Shown in pieces: positions 1-20,268 of a stretch of DNA of 64,000 bases (position 1 is its first letter; the number at the start of each line of letters is the position of its first letter). The DNA is from Candidatus Cloacimonadota bacterium. GTDB taxonomy: Bacteria; Cloacimonadota; Cloacimonadia; Cloacimonadales; Cloacimonadaceae. Where the stretch lies: assembly GCA_020532085.1 (NCBI GenBank), contig JAJBAV010000007.1, positions 1-64,000 on the forward strand, in the 5' to 3' direction. Made by a program: the position numbers and the translations under genes. The notes beneath the pieces were generated by a model. The model was given only the letters and a program-made list of their open reading frames with translations, was not told where the DNA came from and ran no database searches.

Positions 1-83
1 ATAGAGTGACAAAATATGAGCCTATCTATTTTGTCAAGAATTATTTGCAGATTTCAAAAACTACTTTTTGATCCTAAATGCTC

Positions 84-3000
84 TTACTTTTTAACCAGAC
101 CCTGAGGATTATGTGCAAAGGTCTTATAGTAGAAATAGCGGGGTTGATTGGCAGCGCCGCTATGCGGGCAGGAGGGACTGCTGAGGCCGCTCTGCAGCAG
201 GCTGAAGCCGGAGTGGGGATCGCTGGAGAAGTAGATATCGTAGGAATCCGCCCCTGGCACCACGTCCCAGCTGATCAGGATGTCGTTTCCCGAGGGCGTG
301 AGGGTGAAATCCACCGGGGCGCGGGGTTTGGCGTTCCAATCCACAAAGAAGCGCCAGGTGGGGCTGAAGGTCTCATTGTTGCTGAGATCGGTGGCTTTCA
401 CTTTCCAGTAGATGAGGCTGCCGGGGGCGCAGAAGCCGGAATAGATCTGGGTGGCGTCAGTCGTGAAGGTTTGGGCGTTCTCAAAGCCGGCGGAGATGTC
501 CTGATAGATTGTATATGTGACCAGGTCGCCGGGATCCGGATCGACCGCTTCCTCCCAGCTGAGCAGATTGCTGGTGAAATGCACCGTCGCGTTGTAAGCT
601 GGCGAGAGGGGATCGAAGGCCTGGGGCGCTTCCGGCACCATGGTGTCGAACCACCAGTAGTTTTCGTAGCAGAGGGTGACTTGTTCCTGAAGGTCGGTGG
701 CCTTCACGCGCCAGTAGTAGCGGCTGTCGTCTTCAAGCACCGCGGCCGGGAGGTGGTAAACCGAGGCGGAGAGCGGCGTGATGGTGATCAGGCCCAGGGT
801 GAAGCCGCTATTTTCAGCGATCTCCAGGGTGTAGGTGACCACGTCGCCCGGAGTGGGATCGATGGCTTCCTCCCAGTCCAGAACTGGCTCCAGGGTCTCC
901 AGCACAGAGGTGTCTGCCGGAGAGAGCAGATGGAAGCGGGCCGGGGCGTCGCCGATGTCGGTGTCGCGCCAGTCGCCGTAATCCACGTGATCCGAGACGG
1001 GATCGCCTCCGCCGCTGGGATTTCCCGTGTGAGTGGGCCCGGATTCGTGGCCCCACCAGTTGTATCTCGCGTTCACGCTGAAAGCGGTGCTGGTGTTTTG
1101 CACGGCGTAGTCGGTGTTGCCACTGAAGCTGTTGCCGTCACCGCTGCTGCCGCCAATGAGGGGATTGGCGCCGTTGGAGCAGTGAATGCCCACGGGGTTG
1201 CCCTGGATGTAGTTGCGGATCAAAGAGGGCTGGCTGTTGGCCCCGTAAACCCTGATCCCATAATTGCTGCCGTGGCGGATCACGCAGCTTTCCAGCAGGG
1301 GAAAGGCGGAGTTTCCAAAATAGACGTTGCTACCGGCGTATTCCACCACGCAATTCCTGATGTAGCCGCTGGGAGCCTCGTATAAATAGGGGTTCAGGGT
1401 GATGCCGGCCCAGCCGCCGGCGGTTCCGTTCAAAGCTGAAAAAGTGGCGCCATCGGCCTGGAGGCTGCCCTTGTAGGAGTTACTGGTGTAACCCACTGAA
1501 AGTCCTGTCGATTCAGTGAAGAGCAGTGTAAGGCCGGAGTTTATCTTCAGGAGGCAGCCGGCCCCCGACCAGACATTGATGCTCGAGGTCACCTCCACCG
1601 GCACGCTGGGATTGCCCCAAACGTAGTTCTGGTCCAGGGTTCCGCCAGTGATCTGGATGCGGTTGGGGGTGTTGCCGCTGAAGAAATTGCCGGTGCCGCT
1701 CACGGCCTCGAAGGCTTTGGCGCTGGTGCGCACGGGATGGGAGCCGTTGTTGATGAAATCGCAGTCGGTGAGGGTGAATCTTGCCAGGTCCGACCCCGCG
1801 ATCCCGCTGCCGGCATTGTTTTGGAAGCTGCAGCCAAGGAAGCTGGGAAAGGAGTTGTTTACATAAACGGCGGTGTTGTGGCTGGCATCCCGCAGATTCT
1901 CAAACACGCATCCTTCCAGCACGCAGAGGGCATGCGTGAGATAGGGATTGAAGAACAATCCGTAGGAAATCCCGCCGCCGGGAACGCTGGTGAATATAAC
2001 GCCCTCGGCTTCCAGGGAGCCGAAAAACGAGGCGCTGGTGTAGCCCACGGTCAGGGTCCCATCCGCGGGCAGATAGAGCACCGTTCCCGGCAGTATCTTC
2101 AGATGGATGTTGCCGCTGCCATAGATGCCCATTGTGCCGGTGAGGAGATAGGGCACGCCGGGGTCGATCCAGGTGCAGCTTACGTTCACGGTTTCGTGCC
2201 GGACCTCCACCCGGTCGCATTCAGGCAGGTTGTTGCCGCTGAAATCGTTGCCCTCCCCGATGGCGCGCACGCAGTTGGCCGGTAGGGAAAGGGGATAGGA
2301 GCCACAACCGCTGATGCTGTTTCCGGTGAGGGCCACTTGGGTTTGGCTGGTCTCGTAGCGGATGCCGACAGCCAGGCAGTTCAGCACCTGGCAACCGGTC
2401 ATGGTGGCGGCTGGGACCTTGAAGCGCACTCCGGCCACATCCCCGTAACCGGCATCGCGGATGGTGCAGCCGGAGAGCAGGCTGCTGCCTCCATAATATT
2501 CGAACAGCAGGCCCTGCCAATGGCCGGCGCTGGGGCTTTCACCCCTGAAAGTGACGCCAGTGGCACTCACGGCCCCGGTGTAGGAGTTGCTGGTGTAACC
2601 CACCGAAAAACTGGTGTTGGAGGCAAACTCCAAAATGGTTCCCCAGGGCAGGGTCAGAAAGCCGGCCGCGCTGAAACGCAGGTTGATGCTGGCCTGAACC
2701 AGGACAGGGGTGCCCTGGTTGGTCCAGAGGGCAGATTCATAAACGATGCCGCCCCGGCAATGCACCCGGTTGTCCGTGTTAAGCTGGTAAGTGTTTCCCG
2801 GGCCAAGTTTGTGCAGGTCCCTGGCAGCCACGGACACGCACTTGTTGTTGTTCTGAAAGTCTGTCCCGCTGAGGCTGAAGGGGGCATTGTCATTGGCATG
2901 GAGCCCGTAGCTGTCATTGCAGCAGATTTCACAGTCCGTGATGCTCACAGCGAAGTTGGTGTTGCGTAGCCAGACCGCGCCGGTGGCGGTGGAAACCACA

Positions 3001-11669: not shown

Positions 11670-14087
11670 TCAGCCCTCCGCCCGGTTCATTTCCCGCAGG
11701 TGTTTGGCCAGGGGGCGTTTCACCAGTTCAGTAACCGCCAGATAGAGCAGCGCGAGGCCCAGGATCAAGCCCAGGTGGGCGGGCCGGGGAGCGTGGAATT
11801 CGAAGAATCCGGCGGTCCAGGGCAGCGTGGGCAAAGCCACCGCCAGCAGTATGGCGATGCCTGAAAGCGCGATGATCATTGGTGCCGGCCAGCCGGCTTT
11901 TTCGATGTTTTGCAGCGAACGGATGGAAAACAGCAACAGCAGTTCCATGGTTACGCTGGCGATGAACCAGTTGGTTTGCAGCACGCCGGGCTCAAGGCGG
12001 AAAAAGAGGCCGAAGCAGATGAGGTCGAAGATGGTGCTCACAAAGCCCAAAGCGAGGAAGGTGATGTAGAGCGAGCGGAAATCGTAGGTTTGGGGGCGTT
12101 CCACCTCGTTTTTGGGCACGCGGTCGAAGGCGATGGCCAGCATGGGAAAATCCGAGAGCAGATTGAGCAGCAGCAGTTGTTTGGGCAGCATGGGCAGAAA
12201 GTTGATGAAGACGGAGCCGATGGCCACGGCGTAGAAATGGCCAAAATTGGCCACCAGGGTGGCCCGGATGTATTTGAGCGTATTGGCATGGGTTTCCCGC
12301 CCGGAGCGGATGCCGTCCACGATCACGCGCAGGTCGTTTCGCAGCAGCACGATGTCCGCTGTCTCGCGGGCCACGTCGGCGGCGGATTCCACCACCAGCG
12401 AGACATGCGCGGCCTTGAGGGCCGGGGCGTCGTTGATCCCCTCACCTAGAAATCCCACCGTGTATTGCCGTTTGAGCAGTTTGATCAGCTGGAGTTTCTG
12501 CTCCGGGGTGGTGCGCGCGAAAACCCTGATCCGGCCAGCTTTGGCGGCTTGTTCCTCCGCGGGCAGGGCCAGGAAAGCGCCCGCTTCCGTGACCTCGTCG
12601 GCGCCGGTCACCAAGCCGGCCTCACGGCCCACGGCCTCCGCCACCAACAGGGCGTCGCCGGTGATCACGGTGATCTGAACATGCAGTTCACGCGCGGCTT
12701 TCACCGTTTCCAGGGTGCTGTCTTTCAGCCGGTCGATGAAAGAGACAAAGCCGGCGAATCTGGCCTCGCCCTCCTCGCGGTAGCTCACACCCAGGATGCG
12801 GTGGCCCTGGCGTTCCTCCTCCAGCAACCAGGCATTTAGGCTGTCCATGCCGGCCAAACCCTGGTCCATAAAGTATTCCGGGCTGCCGCGGCGGATGTGG
12901 ACGCGGGCGCCGGACGGGGTTTGCACCAAGGCCCCGTTGCTGCGCAGAGCGGGATCGAAACCCTCTTCTTCCAACACTTTAAAACCATCCAACTGCTTCC
13001 GCAGCTCATCCGAGACCGCTTCATCCAGGGCCCGGTCGAAGGGTTCGGGATTCTGCCTGTCCAGGTCGTGGGCGGCCAATCTGGCCAGCAGCAAAGGTTC
13101 GAAGGCCGCGCCCGGCGCTTGTTTGGCGCCCACCAGCGTGAGCTTGTTTTCAGTGATGGTGCCGGTCTTGTCCGTGCAGAGCAGATTCACTCCGCCGAGG
13201 TCCTGAACGGAGGAGAGCCGCTTCACGATCACGCCTTTTTTGGCGAAACGCAGGGCCCCGCGGGAAAGGGAAAACGTGAGCACCAGCGGCAAAGCTTCCG
13301 GGATCACGGAAACCGCCAGCGCGATGGCGAAGATCAGCAGGGTCGGCAGGTCCTTGCCCTTGTTCAGAAAGAGATTGGCCAGCACCACGAAGACGAGGGT
13401 GATCAGGGTCACGCGCAGGATGAATTTGCTGATGCGGTCGATGCCTTTGGTGAGTTCGCTTTCCTGCTGCACCTCGGAGGTGGTGGCGGAGATCGCGGCC
13501 AGCCGGGTGGAGGTTCCGGTGGCGGTTACCTCGGCCAAAGCGTTGCCCCGCACGATCACCACGCCCTGCAGCAATTGGTTCTTTTCAGTGGGTTCAACGC
13601 CTTCCGCCACAGCGTGTTTGGCCACCGGAATGCTTTCCCCGGTGAAGGTGGTCTCATCCGCCGTCAGGTCCCGCGTCTCGCGCACCACGGCGTCGGCGGG
13701 AACGATGTCGCCGGGCTTGAGTTTGATGATGTCGCCCGGAACCAGTTCCGCTGTGTCAAGTTCCTGGTCGCGCCCGTCCCGCAGCACCGTGATCCTGTTC
13801 ACCAGATAGCTCTTGAGGCTGGCCGCGGCGGCGTTGGCCTTGAATTCCTGATAAACGTTCAGGGCGGTGCCCAGAATGATGAAAAAGAGGATGAAGCCCG
13901 CGTCGGTGGCCTCCCCCACAAAAAAGGTGACCACCGCGGCGGCCAGCAGCAGGAGGTTGAAGATACCCTTAAGTTGGCGCCAGATCAGTTTAAACAGGCT
14001 GAACCGGCTTTCCGGCAACACGTTGCGGCCGTGAGCAGCCAGGCGGTCGCGGGCTTCCGCGGCGCTGAGTCCTGTCCATTGTTGCAT
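11670..14087 (-). CDS. Cation-transporting P-type ATPase
   Basis: 805 aa from MQQWTGLSAAEARDRLAAHG. This start has AAGGA 8 nt upstream; longer starts at 14096 and 14222 are less well placed. It shows the actuator TGES (FTGESIPVAKH), the phosphorylation site CTDKTGTIT, a hinge GEGINDAPALK (Glu replaces the usual Asp in GDG) and IPEALPLVLT in the M4 ion-binding helix. It has an N-terminal cation-ATPase domain and several C-terminal membrane helices. It pumps an inorganic cation across the inner membrane; type II/III is likely but the ion is not clear. It is divergent from the CARF nuclease and next to a repeat-rich region. Confidence 0.93.
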   Translation of the reverse strand: MQQWTGLSAAEARDRLAAHGRNVLPESRFSLFKLIWRQLKGIFNLLLLAAAVVTFFVGEATDAGFILFFIILGTALNVYQEFKANAAAASLKSYLVNRITVLRDGRDQELDTAELVPGDIIKLKPGDIVPADAVVRETRDLTADETTFTGESIPVAKHAVAEGVEPTEKNQLLQGVVIVRGNALAEVTATGTSTRLAAISATTSEVQQESELTKGIDRISKFILRVTLITLVFVVLANLFLNKGKDLPTLLIFAIALAVSVIPEALPLVLTFSLSRGALRFAKKGVIVKRLSSVQDLGGVNLLCTDKTGTITENKLTLVGAKQAPGAAFEPLLLARLAAHDLDRQNPEPFDRALDEAVSDELRKQLDGFKVLEEEGFDPALRSNGALVQTPSGARVHIRRGSPEYFMDQGLAGMDSLNAWLLEEERQGHRILGVSYREEGEARFAGFVSFIDRLKDSTLETVKAARELHVQITVITGDALLVAEAVGREAGLVTGADEVTEAGAFLALPAEEQAAKAGRIRVFARTTPEQKLQLIKLLKRQYTVGFLGEGINDAPALKAAHVSLVVESAADVARETADIVLLRNDLRVIVDGIRSGRETHANTLKYIRATLVANFGHFYAVAIGSVFINFLPMLPKQLLLLNLLSDFPMLAIAFDRVPKNEVERPQTYDFRSLYITFLALGFVSTIFDLICFGLFFRLEPGVLQTNWFIASVTMELLLLFSIRSLQNIEKAGWPAPMIIALSGIAILLAVALPTLPWTAGFFEFHAPRPAHLGLILGLALLYLAVTELVKRPLAKHLREMNRAEG

Positions 14088-14305
14088 TGCTGTCATCCTT
14101 GTGATGCGATTTTTGGCGGCGTGAGTCAGGTTTCTGATCAGTGATCGCCTCCCACGCCAACGGCTTTGCGGGCCAGGCGCGGAGGCAAGGTTTGCAAAAT
14201 CCCCGCGCGGCGGAAATGTCAAGCTAAAATTCCGCGGGCGGGAAAAGGGTTGACTTCAGCGGCGGGAGCAGGGAAGTTGTCCGCAAAAGCTTTCCGAGGT
14301 GATCG

Positions 14306-15379
14306 ATGTCCCGATATTTGGTGTCGCTGGTGGGGGAATTGGTGATTCCCAACCTTCTGTTGATCAAGACTTTGAGCGATTGTGACCACTATGTATTCCT
14401 CTGCCCCAGGGGCGGGGAGGCGCGGCAACAGGTCCAGCGCCTGTGCGCCGTTTCCCACATCGAAGCACCCCTGGTGCTGGAGATGAACGAATTCAGCCTC
14501 GAGAATATCGACACGGTCCTGAAAAACCAGCTGAACGACCCCGCGGCGGAGTATTGGGTGAATCTCACCACCGGTTCCCGGATCATGGCTCTGGCAGCCT
14601 TTGAGCACTTCCGGAAACTACGCTCCCAGATACTCTATCTACCGCCGCAGAGCAACACCTTCCAGCAGCTCTGGCCCAGCCACGTGGAACAGCACTTGCC
14701 GGTGAAGCACAGGCTGGATTTGGACAGCTGCCTGCAGGCCCACGGCGTGCAGGTTACGCGCAAATCACTGCAGCAGCACAGCCTGGGCCAGATGGAAGCC
14801 ATGTTCGCCATCATCACCCAAAACTCCAATTCCCGCTTCATGAGCAGGCTGAACCGCCTGGGCTCGGAAAACCGCGGGGCCAATGAAGAGAAAAGCCTGG
14901 CCCAGTTGAACCGAAAGTTCAGCCAGGCTTTGGGCATTTCCAGCCACGAAGTTGAAAGACCCGGCTGGCTGTCTTTCATCAAAGGCGCCTGGTTCGAGGA
15001 ATACATGGCGTACTGGCTGGGCAGAAGCGTGGGTGAGGTCTTTCACGGCGTGGTGATCGAACGGGACGGAGTGCAAAACGAACTTGACTGCGCCTTCATG
15101 CACGAGAACCGACTCCATTTCGTGGAACTGAAAGCCTCGGCCAACCTCGGCGACCTCAACGAGTTTCTCTACAAACTGGATTCCCTGGGCAAAGATTTCG
15201 GGCTGTTGCCCCGCTGTTTCCTGGGCATCGCCGATCCCGACGTGGAGCAGGGCCTGCGCCACAATCAGCATTACCTGCGCCGGGCCAGAATTATGGGCAT
15301 CCGGATCCTCACCTACAACCAGCTGAAACCGCAAAACATCGAGAAAAGCCTGCGGGAGGCACTGTTCAGTAACGGATGA
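14306..15379 (+). CDS. Card1/Can2-like CARF-domain nuclease (DUF1887 family)
   Basis: 357 aa. The N-terminal part (1-150) is CARF-like, with a short first strand (YLVSLVGE) and the ligand-loop motif NLTTGSRIMALA (86-97). The C-terminal part (about 225-340) is a PD-(D/E)xK nuclease core: Glu231/232 in GAWFEEYM, Asp261 in NELDCAF and Glu274-x-Lys276 in FVELKAS. This order matches DUF1887/Card1 proteins, which known members use as cyclic-tetra-adenylate-activated nucleases in type III CRISPR defence. No cas gene or CRISPR array is in the window, so the source of any cyclic oligoadenylate is not visible. The ATG has a weak AGGT upstream. Family assignment is by eye. Confidence 0.8.
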   Translation: MSRYLVSLVGELVIPNLLLIKTLSDCDHYVFLCPRGGEARQQVQRLCAVSHIEAPLVLEMNEFSLENIDTVLKNQLNDPAAEYWVNLTTGSRIMALAAFEHFRKLRSQILYLPPQSNTFQQLWPSHVEQHLPVKHRLDLDSCLQAHGVQVTRKSLQQHSLGQMEAMFAIITQNSNSRFMSRLNRLGSENRGANEEKSLAQLNRKFSQALGISSHEVERPGWLSFIKGAWFEEYMAYWLGRSVGEVFHGVVIERDGVQNELDCAFMHENRLHFVELKASANLGDLNEFLYKLDSLGKDFGLLPRCFLGIADPDVEQGLRHNQHYLRRARIMGIRILTYNQLKPQNIEKSLREALFSNG

Positions 15380-15759
15380 GGGCTTGACGCGGAGGGAAAG
15401 GGCGCTTGTTTTGAAAAAGGCTCATGTTTAAATAGAGTGGGTGCGACTGTGTCATCCCAGCGTAGGCTGGGATCCAGAACCTACTACCCGCCCCGCCCGT
15501 CATCCCAGCACAGGCTGGGATCCAGAAAGACATTCACATGTGCTAATTGCTTTAATTAACAAAGTGTACCAGTTCTGGATTCCAGCCTGCGCTGGATGAC
15601 GCTCGATTTTTCCCACCATGAATGAACTTGAGCCGAAAGAAAACCAAAAGAAGAAGCGATATAATCAAGAACTTATTCAGAGGGATAACCTGATGGTTTT
15701 AACCCCAATACGCAAACCCGATCTCTGTGTCTCTGTTCCTCTGTTTTTGTAATGGACTT
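15380..15759. other. Intergenic region holding a MITE-like element
   Basis: 380 bp between the ends of the CARF nuclease and fumarase beta genes. 15419-15634 is a MITE-like element; the remaining 15635-15759 shows no gene or clear terminator. Confidence 0.7.
15419..15634. mobile_element. MITE-like element, copy 1
   Basis: 216 bp with imperfect inverted ends: left GGCTCATGTTTAAATAGAGT(GGGT), right CCCACCATGAATGAACTTGA(GCC). Inside are two copies of TCATCCCAGC-GGCTGGGATCCAGAA and an inverted partner TTCTGGATTCCAGCCTGCG. No coding capacity. Same plan as 42630-42857. Confidence 0.75.
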
Positions 15760-16263
15760 TCAGACGATGGCGACGTAACAGGGAAGGTCTTTTACCACAA
15801 AGCGATGGATCGCCTCGGCACCCAGTTCCGGCCAGAAGTATGTTTCACGTGAAACCACGCACTGGGCCAGAAGGGCGGAAATGCCGCCCACACAGACCAG
15901 ATAGAGCGCGCCGTGCTGACGGATGGCGGTTTCGATTTCAGGCGAACGCTCGCCTTTGCCGATCATGACCTTCAATCCCATATCCAGCAAAGGAATAGTG
16001 TAAGGGTCCATTCTGTAAGAGGTTGTGGGCCCGAGCGAGCCGCTCGCCTGGCCTGGAGGAACCGGAGCCGGTCCGCAGTAAAAGATGGCGGTGGCGCTGA
16101 TATCGAAGGGAAGCGGCTCAGCTTTGTTGATCATTTCCACCAGGCGTAGATGCGCCTGGTCCCGGGCGGTGTAGATCTCACCGCTGAGCAGGACCTTGTC
16201 GCCAATCTTATAACCGGAGTATACCGCGGGTAAGGCGGGGAGGGTAAGTTCATGTATGATCAT
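15760..16263 (-). CDS. Fumarate hydratase class I, beta-type subunit
   Basis: 167 aa from MIIHELTLPALPAVYSGYK; an alternative start at 16287 adds 8 residues. The iron-sulfur hydro-lyase beta signature is present (GDKVLLSGEIYTARDQAHLR, FYCGPAPVPPGQ, GPTTSYRMDPY, MIGKGERSPE). With the alpha chain it makes the 4Fe-4S enzyme that interconverts fumarate and malate. It follows the alpha gene by 39 nt or less, in one operon. A tartrate dehydratase activity cannot be excluded. Confidence 0.9.
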   Translation of the reverse strand: MIIHELTLPALPAVYSGYKIGDKVLLSGEIYTARDQAHLRLVEMINKAEPLPFDISATAIFYCGPAPVPPGQASGSLGPTTSYRMDPYTIPLLDMGLKVMIGKGERSPEIETAIRQHGALYLVCVGGISALLAQCVVSRETYFWPELGAEAIHRFVVKDLPCYVAIV

Positions 16264-16302
16264 GTTTTGCTCAAGCTGGCCGGCCATGTTTCGCGTGAAA
16301 CA

Positions 16303-17178
16303 TCAGATCACCCGGGTGCTGCTCCGGTGGGCGTGGCAGTCAAGATTTACCGCCACGGGCAGGGAAGCTATGTGACGGGGCCGGGTGAGGATGGAAACTT
16401 TCAAGGCGGTGGTGGAACCGGCAAAGCCCATCACCCCCCTGCCAAGTTCATTTATGCGTTTGAGTATCCTCGCTTCCATCAACTCCAGTTCTGGGTCTTT
16501 GGGTTCATTCAGCATTAAAGCCCGTTTGGCCAGGATCGCGCAAGCTTCGAAATCACCTCCGATGCCGACACCCACAAAGACCGGCGGACATGGTTTTCCT
16601 CCGGCCGAAACAACCGTTTGGACCACAAAGTCCTCTATCTCCGCCAGGGTGGCGCCGGGCAGGAACATCCTCAGCGCGCTGCAGTTTTCCGCGCCGCCAC
16701 CTTTCAAGGCCAGGTGCAGGGTCAGTTTGTCACCCGGAACCTGGTTGAGGTGCAGAATGAAGGGCAGGGAAGTGCCTAGCGGTTCTGCTCCGGAAAGCCT
16801 GGCTTCACTGTCAGACACGCTGTTCCGCCCGGGATACGCGGCGAGGGAATCCCGCAGGTAATATTTACGCCAGGCCTCGCCGGCCGCCTCGCCGATCAAC
16901 TCTTCCAGGGTCCCACCCGTGATCAGCAGCTCTGTGCCGATTTCGGCGAACACGATCAGCAACCCCGTATCCTGGCAGAGGGGTAGTCGCTCCCGCGCGG
17001 CGAGCTGGTGATTTTGCAGAATGGCGGCCAGCATGTCGCGGGCGATCTCATCTGGTTCGCCGTCCAGGGCCCGGAGCAAAAGCTCAGCTGTTTCAGACGT
17101 AGGCCGGCAGAAAATTTCCCCAATGCCGGAAATCACCGCGGCCTTGATCTGAGTGGCGGAAACGGTTTTTACCGCCAT
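16303..17178 (-). CDS. Fumarate hydratase class I, alpha-type subunit
   Basis: 291 aa, typical of the separate alpha chain. Visible signatures include LCQDTGLLIVFAEIG, a conserved cysteine in GGAENCSALRMF and another in GKPCPPVFVGVGIGG, both expected [4Fe-4S] ligands, and the ending VAVNLDCHAHR. It pairs with the beta chain immediately downstream and sits 68 nt after the DUF58 gene. It acts in the cytoplasmic citric acid/reductive pathway; tartrate hydro-lyase is the alternative. Confidence 0.92.
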   Translation of the reverse strand: MAVKTVSATQIKAAVISGIGEIFCRPTSETAELLLRALDGEPDEIARDMLAAILQNHQLAARERLPLCQDTGLLIVFAEIGTELLITGGTLEELIGEAAGEAWRKYYLRDSLAAYPGRNSVSDSEARLSGAEPLGTSLPFILHLNQVPGDKLTLHLALKGGGAENCSALRMFLPGATLAEIEDFVVQTVVSAGGKPCPPVFVGVGIGGDFEACAILAKRALMLNEPKDPELELMEARILKRINELGRGVMGFAGSTTALKVSILTRPRHIASLPVAVNLDCHAHRSSTRVI

Positions 17179-19856: not shown

Positions 19857-20268
19857 CCCATGGGAAAACGATAAGCCGGATTCTGTGGCCCGTGCTCACG
19901 CGCGGGCTGATGTCCATTCCTCTGGACCCGCTCTCACGAACGGGTTCAAGCTGCCTACCCGGAAGCCGTAACCGCGCGGGCCGCGCTTCGTGGCTTCCCT
20001 ATTTGGCATTGCACCGGATAAGGCATTCCCGTCAAGCCCTGTCACCAAGGCTTCCGGTGGTCTCTTACACCACCATTTCACCCTTGCCCGGCACAAAAAA
20101 GCTGCGGTCTCTCAACGGCAACCAAAAAAGGAGCGCGCCGGGCGGTTTGTTTCTGTGGAGCTGCTCCGCATTGCTGCGGCTTCCCGTTAGGAAGTATCCC
20201 GCCCTGTGGTGTCCGGACTTTCCTCTGCACCCGCGAGGGATACAGCGGACATCTGGTTTTCCCATGGG
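19857..20268 (-). ncRNA. rnpB: RNase P RNA (type A)
   Basis: On the minus strand the conserved core elements appear in order: GAGGAAAGTCCGGACACC near the 5' end, AGGGTGAAATGGTGGTGTAA, GGCAGCTTGAACCC, AGAGGAATGG and CACAGAATCCGGCTTAT near the 3' end. CCCATGGGAAAAC at the 5' end pairs exactly with GTTTTCCCATGGG at the 3' end to form P1, which sets the limits at about 412 nt. A run of T follows P1 and probably ends transcription. It is the catalytic RNA for tRNA 5' maturation. Confidence 0.97.

What the first reader, a model, noticed from the sequence alone, without database searches (positions are those of the whole stretch)
14306..15379. Orphan Card1/Can2-like CARF nuclease
The protein combines a CARF-like N-terminus (NLTTGSRIMALA) with a complete PD-(D/E)xK core (GAWFEEYM, NELDCAF, FVELKAS), the domain order of DUF1887/Card1 proteins. 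Known Card1 is activated by cyclic tetra-adenylate from type III CRISPR complexes, yet no cas gene or CRISPR array lies within the window (14 kb to the left, 48 kb to the right). It could serve a distant type III locus, another cyclic oligonucleotide source, or act alone. It sits between a repeat-rich region and a MITE-like element, which fits a mobile or accessory position.
Basis: partly seen in the sequence, partly recalled or inferred. Interest (0 to 1): 0.75.

Follow-up and report, generated by a model that had tools for sequence, protein, structure and literature searches.

The report
Chromosomal Card1-family nuclease, altered ligand pocket
This bacterial gene makes a relative of the CRISPR-linked nuclease Card1/Can2 whose cutting site is intact but whose signal-binding pocket has lost four of the five residues that the family uses to sense its usual messenger, which suggests it has left CRISPR and now answers to a different, still unknown, signal.

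Summary
Window 14306-15379 (+) encodes a 357-aa protein of the DUF1887 (Can2/Card1) family: a Card1 CARF domain plus a Card1 endonuclease domain, both above Pfam cut-offs, with Card1, Can2 and VC1899 as the nearest folds and all PD-(D/E)xK residues kept.

The interpretation needs two corrections. First, the genome is not CRISPR-free. Contig C28 carries a CRISPR array and a Prim-Pol/TPR/cas1/cas2 module of the kind that sits in type III-A operons of relatives. No Cas10 or RAMP is in the assembly, but C28 breaks at a multi-copy element exactly where those genes would lie. Second, the gene is not in a mobile position: it sits at one site beside fumarase genes in all four species of one clade, under purifying selection.

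The new point is the pocket. Of five cA4-contacting positions conserved across the Can2 family, four are replaced (Ser/Thr to Gly10, Gln to Leu12, Thr to Pro34, Lys to Arg92), identically in all four species, while type III-linked relatives keep them. Published alanine mutations at two of these positions severely reduce cA4 activation.

Most likely this is a ligand-gated nuclease that no longer senses cA4 canonically, comparable to orphan VC1899. An in-trans type III effector remains possible. No activity was tested.

The parts
14306..15379 (+). CDS of the Card1/Can2-family (DUF1887, CARF4) nuclease, 357 aa, single-gene unit
14306..14755 (+). CARF (ligand-sensing) domain, residues 1-150 (Pfam CARF_Card1 5-139)
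   Evidence: model secondary structure
14333..14341 (+). Gly10-Glu11-Leu12: replaces Ser/Thr-x-Gln of the family (Can2 Ser19-Asp20-His21, Card1 Ser-Glu-Gln); cA4 phosphate contact lost
   Evidence: alignments; Can2 contacts; Cdn1 mutants
14405..14407 (+). Pro34: replaces the adenine-contacting Thr (Can2 Thr42, Cdn1 Thr37)
14561..14587 (+). CARF loop NLTTGSRIM; Arg92 replaces the conserved Lys (Can2 Lys99, Cdn1 Lys104), Ser91 replaces Thr
14636..14638 (+). Tyr111: the one of the five conserved cA4 contacts that is kept (Can2 Tyr118)
14975..15313 (+). PD-(D/E)xK nuclease domain (Pfam Card1_endonuc, residues 224-336); catalytic Glu231, Glu259, Asp261, Glu274, Lys276 all present
   Evidence: active-site residues named
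11670..14222 (-). Neighbour: P-type cation ATPase, divergent; left neighbour also in G024 and G022 but not in G019
15760..17178 (-). Neighbours: fumarase C-terminal and N-terminal subunits, convergent; right neighbours in all four species that carry the gene, and present without it in nine other genus members
15451..15527 (.).

Best explanation
The gene encodes a Can2/Card1-type protein: a CARF domain that should pair across a dimer to hold a cyclic nucleotide, and a PD-(D/E)xK nuclease that is switched on when the ligand is bound. It descends from the type III-linked family, but in this Cloacimonadota clade it left the CRISPR locus, settled beside the fumarase genes, and had its pocket rewritten. 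Four of the five cA4 contacts conserved across the family are replaced, in the same way in all four species, while the catalytic site is untouched. I therefore think it is no longer gated by cA4 in the canonical way and answers to another ligand, most likely another phosphate-bearing nucleotide because Arg92 and Tyr111 remain, on which it would cut DNA and/or RNA. Shown: family, fold, catalytic residues, pocket substitutions, synteny, purifying selection. Inferred: dimer, ligand gating, change of ligand, nucleic-acid target, direction of the move out of CRISPR.
For: Family and fold. Catalytic residues aligned with Can2, Card1 and Cdn1. Pocket: the Cdn1 paper (PMC12825302) reports T9, Q11, T37, K104, Y124 as conserved across all Can2-family clades, and that T9A, K104A and Y124A severely reduce cA4-induced activity while Q11A does not. 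The aligned residues here are G10, L12, P34, R92, Y111. The type III-linked G018 copy in the same genus, at 39% identity, has S, Q, T, K, Y, as do G104 and Card1; Can2 has S, H, T, K, Y and G103 differs only by S for T. Among CARF positions conserved in the type III-linked set, contact positions are changed more often than others (4 of 5 against 3 of 20, Fisher p 0.012). The new pocket residues are invariant in all four species (7 of 7 contact positions against 78 of 150 CARF positions, p 0.009), which fits a new constraint rather than decay. dN/dS is about 0.16-0.19 against G019, G024 and G022, like the neighbouring fumarase (0.11-0.24). One clade, one site. The published orphan VC1899 also lost these contacts (Asp9, Asp34, Arg96, Val115) and is not activated by cA4 (PMC7969007).
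Against: No ligand or activity was measured. Lys to Arg keeps the charge and Tyr111 is kept; Q11A in Cdn1 kept most activity. The residue mapping is from sequence alignment of distant homologues (about 20-25% identity to solved structures). Only four sequences define the clade and five the comparison set. At least one clade member (G019) and probably this genome have or had a type III system, so cA4 could be available.
Confidence: 0.5

Rival explanations
1. It is an ordinary cA4-activated Card1 effector that works in trans for a type III CRISPR system elsewhere in the genome; the pocket changes are tolerated and the Cas10 genes are only missing from the assembly.
For: G000 has a CRISPR array, cas2, cas1, a TPR gene and a Prim-Pol gene on C28. 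The four genes are in the same order as in G018, where Cas10, csm genes and a Card1 homologue lie directly upstream. C28 ends 404 bp upstream of the Prim-Pol in a 127-bp repeat shared by 15 contig ends, so the place where Cas10 is expected is unassembled. G019 has a Cas10 with GGDD about 21 kb from its copy. Inter-locus signalling is discussed in PMC11229360. Arg92 and Tyr111 retain part of the site.
Against: No Cas10 palm or RAMP in a genome rated 99.18% complete, and the full G018 Cas10 finds nothing in G000. The essential Ser/Thr contact is Gly and the Thr contact is Pro in all four species, while type III-linked relatives keep them.
Confidence: 0.33
2. It is a decaying leftover, cast adrift from CRISPR, with little or no function, as suggested for VC1899.
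For: Same fold, orphan status and loss of cA4 contacts as VC1899, which shows only weak cA4-independent RNase activity in vitro.
Against: Intact ORF in four species, all catalytic residues kept, dN/dS about 0.16-0.19, pocket residues invariant across the clade.
Confidence: 0.12
3. It answers to another known second-messenger source in the same genome, such as a CD-NTase (CBASS) or the minimal polymerase mCpol.
For: The pocket has changed, so another messenger is plausible.
Against: No SMODS nucleotidyltransferase in 13 genus genomes and no mCpol in 15 genomes including this one. Other cyclase families were not searched.
Confidence: 0.05

Closest known systems
Card1 (Treponema succinifaciens, PDB 6wxw/6xl1)
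   Same: CARF then PD-(D/E)xK order, fold (Foldseek E 5.2e-21), catalytic residues, Tyr contact
   Different: Card1 has Ser-Glu-Gln, Thr and Lys in the cA4 pocket and is a type III CRISPR effector; here Gly-Glu-Leu, Pro, Arg and no cas genes nearby
Can2 (Sulfobacillus, PDB 7bdv)
   Same: Architecture, fold (E 1.1e-20), catalytic residues
   Different: Can2 contacts Ser19, Thr42, Lys99 map to Gly10, Pro34, Arg92; Can2 is cA4-activated and type III-associated (PMC7969007)
VC1899 (Vibrio cholerae, PDB 1xmx)
   Same: Orphan DUF1887 nuclease outside a type III locus, lost cA4 contacts, Lys to Arg in the same loop, best query-normalised TM-score of all hits (0.78)
   Different: VC1899 has negatively charged pocket residues (Asp9, Asp34) and Val at the Tyr position; about 20% identity; the replacements differ, which suggests separate losses
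Card1 homologue in the G018 type III-A operon (same genus, 39% identity)
   Same: Nearest relative outside the clade; same length and catalytic site
   Different: Lies between an APE2256-family CARF gene and the Prim-Pol-TPR-cas1-cas2 genes, downstream of cas10/csm; keeps all five cA4 contacts
Cdn1 (Psychrobacter, PDB 8z4i/9u49)
   Same: DUF1887-family CARF nuclease, fold match E 1.5e-17
   Different: Type III-B-linked, responds to cA4 and cA6, keeps the conserved contacts T9, Q11, T37, K104, Y124

Membership tests
DUF1887 / Can2-Card1 protein family (CARF4--PD-(D/E)xK), by sequence | N-terminal CARF domain of the Card1 type | tested here: met
   PF23400 E 4.3e-17, 62.9 bits against cut-off 24.6
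DUF1887 / Can2-Card1 protein family (CARF4--PD-(D/E)xK), by sequence | C-terminal Card1-type endonuclease domain | tested here: met
   PF09002 E 3.1e-10, 40.2 bits against cut-off 26.4; PADLOC CARF4--CARF_PDDEXK E 3.8e-47
DUF1887 / Can2-Card1 protein family (CARF4--PD-(D/E)xK), by sequence | PD-(D/E)xK catalytic residues | tested here: met
   Glu231, Glu259, Asp261, Glu274, Lys276 aligned with Can2/Card1 and invariant in the clade
DUF1887 / Can2-Card1 protein family (CARF4--PD-(D/E)xK), by sequence | Fold | tested here: met
   Foldseek of the model: Card1, Can2, VC1899, Cdn1 are the top hits, TMq 0.68-0.78
Can2/Card1 as type III CRISPR cA4 effector (functional class) | Conserved cA4 contacts (Ser/Thr, Gln, Thr, Lys, Tyr) | tested here: not met
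   Gly10, Leu12, Pro34, Arg92, Tyr111: one of five kept
Can2/Card1 as type III CRISPR cA4 effector (functional class) | Encoded with, or in a genome with, a Cas10-containing type III system | tested here: inconclusive
   No Cas10 or RAMP in the assembly, but a CRISPR array and Prim-Pol-TPR-Cas1-Cas2 module are present and cut off by a contig end
Can2/Card1 as type III CRISPR cA4 effector (functional class) | cA4-activated nuclease activity | not testable with these tools
   Needs biochemistry
Orphan DUF1887 proteins of the VC1899 kind | Not linked to type III genes, cA4 contacts lost, nuclease residues kept | tested here: met
   with VC1899 as described in PMC7969007; in-trans type III genes not fully excluded
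Orphan DUF1887 proteins of the VC1899 kind | Close relationship to VC1899 itself | tested here: not met
   About 20% identity by fold alignment against 39% to the G018 type III-linked copy; no wide tree was built

The most novel reading that the evidence does not exclude
A Card1-family nuclease has been moved out of CRISPR into a fixed chromosomal site and re-tuned to a signalling nucleotide other than cA4, so that a lineage of Cloacimonadota uses a CRISPR-derived alarm nuclease in a separate pathway with an unknown messenger and an unknown synthase.
Probability: 0.35. Interest if true: 0.75.

Novelty: new variant of a known kind. Interest (0 to 1): 0.5.

Why it matters
Makarova et al. 2014 (PMC4012209) noted that each CARF family has members unlinked to CRISPR, and VC1899 was called possibly degenerate, but what such orphans do is open. 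This clade gives a cleaner case than VC1899: four species, one site, catalytic residues and a distinct pocket both conserved, and a type III-linked relative in the same genus (G018) with the usual pocket as a natural control. That makes the question of whether orphan CARF nucleases have new ligands directly testable by swapping a few residues between two proteins.

Tried and rejected
Cas3_HD, mCpol and SMODS searches were negative. The genome-contig scan gave only the G022 locus (titled Candidatus Cloacimonadota). Plasmid, phage and viral-contig searches with this protein found no homologue. The repeats left of the gene (10.9-11.5 kb) were checked and are short tandem repeats, not a CRISPR array. 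No Rfam RNA overlaps the gene. Promoter and terminator scans were uninformative. I considered that C7 and C28 are neighbours through one copy of the repeated element and rejected direct adjacency, because both contig ends carry the same end of that element. Counting the other end of the element to see whether a contig is missing was considered but not done. The paper by Rostol et al. on Card1 and Makarova et al. 2020 on the CARF superfamily are not held.

Full report
The gene. The 357-aa ORF at 14306-15379 (+) is real. It scores above the curated Pfam cut-offs for the Card1 CARF domain and the Card1 endonuclease domain, matches a PADLOC CARF4--CARF_PDDEXK model at 3.8e-47 over nearly its length, and finds Card1 and Can2 in the PDB by sequence alone. 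A model built on five homologues (pLDDT 88.8) has Card1, Can2 and VC1899 as nearest solved folds. All residues of the PD-(D/E)xK site named in the literature for this family have counterparts: Glu231, Glu259, Asp261, Glu274, Lys276.

The organism and the spread. The window is bases 1-64000 of contig C7 (88,287 bp) of a 2.81-Mb, 98-contig, 99.18%-complete genome. A 69%-identical locus is titled Candidatus Cloacimonadota. Among 107 genomes of the order, close relatives occur only in the same genus: G019 (79%), G024 and G022 (69%), and a more distant one in G018 (38-39%); G103 and G104 of another family hold remote ones.

The position is fixed. In G000, G019, G022 and G024 the gene faces the same pair of fumarase genes. 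In the nine other genus members examined the fumarase genes are present and this gene is not found beside them (some of those contigs end shortly after the fumarase genes). A tree of four neighbouring proteins puts the four carriers in one clade (ultrafast bootstrap 95, FastTree 0.98). One gain or move in their ancestor followed by vertical descent is the simplest reading. dN/dS against G019, G024 and G022 is 0.16-0.19, similar to the adjacent fumarase gene (dS is high, so the values are rough).

CRISPR in this genome. No Cas10 palm domain, RAMP or Cas3 HD is found, and the G018 Cas10 protein finds nothing. But C28 carries Cas1, Cas2, a TPR gene and a Prim-Pol of the AEP-TOTE type. These four are in the same order as in G018, G001, G033, G008 and G043, with Cas1 62-66% identical. 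In G018 this module directly follows cas10, csm genes, an APE2256-family CARF gene and the Card1 homologue. CAPP Prim-Pols associated with Cas1-Cas2 are described from type III-A and III-B systems (PMC8211822). C28 also holds a CRISPR array of 8 perfect 37-nt repeats and one degenerate one. A Mu-like prophage of 29,955 bp, C28:2626-32580, with a Mu transposase and a 5-bp target duplication AGTTT, sits in the last codons of cas2; joining the flanks restores a cas2 end (TTEEKLIIV*) like that of G018 (RDEELIII*) and places the array directly downstream. On the other side, the contig stops 404 bp upstream of the Prim-Pol, in a 127-bp sequence found at 15 contig ends, including the first 131 bases of this window; I take it for the end of an insertion sequence, which was not identified. 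So the effector genes were either removed with such an insertion or lie in an unassembled piece. This cannot be decided here.

The pocket. Published work names the cA4 contacts of Can2 (Ser19, Asp20, His21, Thr42, Lys99, Tyr118, Ser121; PMC7969007). For Cdn1 it states that T9, Q11, T37, K104 and Y124 are conserved across all clades of the family, that T9A, K104A and Y124A severely reduce cA4-induced activity, that T37 is important, and that Q11A keeps most activity (PMC12825302). In the present protein these five are Gly10, Leu12, Pro34, Arg92 and Tyr111. The four carriers agree at all of them. The type III-linked copies in G018 and G104, and Card1, have Ser, Gln, Thr, Lys, Tyr; Can2 has His for Gln and G103 has Ser for Thr. 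The enrichment of fixed changes at contact positions is modest in numbers (4 of 5 against 3 of 20, p 0.012), and all seven contact positions are invariant inside the clade (p 0.009). Catalytic positions show no change. The orphan VC1899 has also lost these contacts, by other replacements, and is not regulated by cA4. A DUF1887 protein in a type VII secretion cluster on a Caballeronia plasmid, also not CRISPR-linked, has Gly at the same Ser position but keeps Gln, Lys and Tyr.

Reading. The nuclease is conserved; the sensor is different, and conserved in its difference. That favours a working, ligand-gated nuclease with a changed ligand over both a standard cA4 effector and a dead remnant. The in-trans type III rival stays open, because a type III-like CRISPR locus exists in the genome, because G019 has a GGDD-bearing Cas10, and because Arg92 and Tyr111 could still hold a cyclic oligoadenylate.

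Limits. The genomes compared are mostly fragmentary assemblies; G022 and G024 are 71% and 80% complete, so their lack of Cas10 says little. Residue mapping rests on alignments with about 20-25% identity to solved structures, though the motifs are clear. No biochemical property was tested.

Noticed in passing
G000:C28:2626-32580 (L058, L056): A 29,955-bp Mu-like prophage (Mu-transposase, MuB-like ATPase, portal-, capsid- and tape-measure-like genes) with 5-bp duplication AGTTT is inserted in the last codons of cas2, separating cas2 from its CRISPR array and giving Cas2 a new C-terminal tail.
   Followed up: yes
window 1-131; G000:C28:37401-37527: The window starts with the end of a multi-copy element: a ~127-bp sequence shared by 15 contig ends of this genome.
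   Followed up: partly
G000:C28:3-1136 (-): A second, contig-cut Mu-type transposase similar to the one in the prophage, so the CRISPR array lies between two Mu-like elements.
   Followed up: no
   Followed up: partly
L034 (G019:C58:65309-66781): A CARF/RtcR-type sigma-54 activator stands about 1.4 kb before the G019 type III cas10, suggesting transcriptional control by a ligand.
   Followed up: no
L036:3466-4656 (-): In G022 a gene with a Fic-like motif (HPFLDGNGRIGR) lies between the P-type ATPase and the Card1-family gene.
   Followed up: no
L091:5335-7128: Caballeronia plasmid pSBC2-5 has a 597-aa DUF1887 CARF protein inside a type VII secretion-like cluster with kinase and phosphatase genes; its CARF loop has Gly at the Ser position.
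   Followed up: partly
window 19857-20264 (-): Bacterial RNase P RNA class A, complete; a mechanical ORF on the + strand overlaps it and is not a gene.
   Followed up: no
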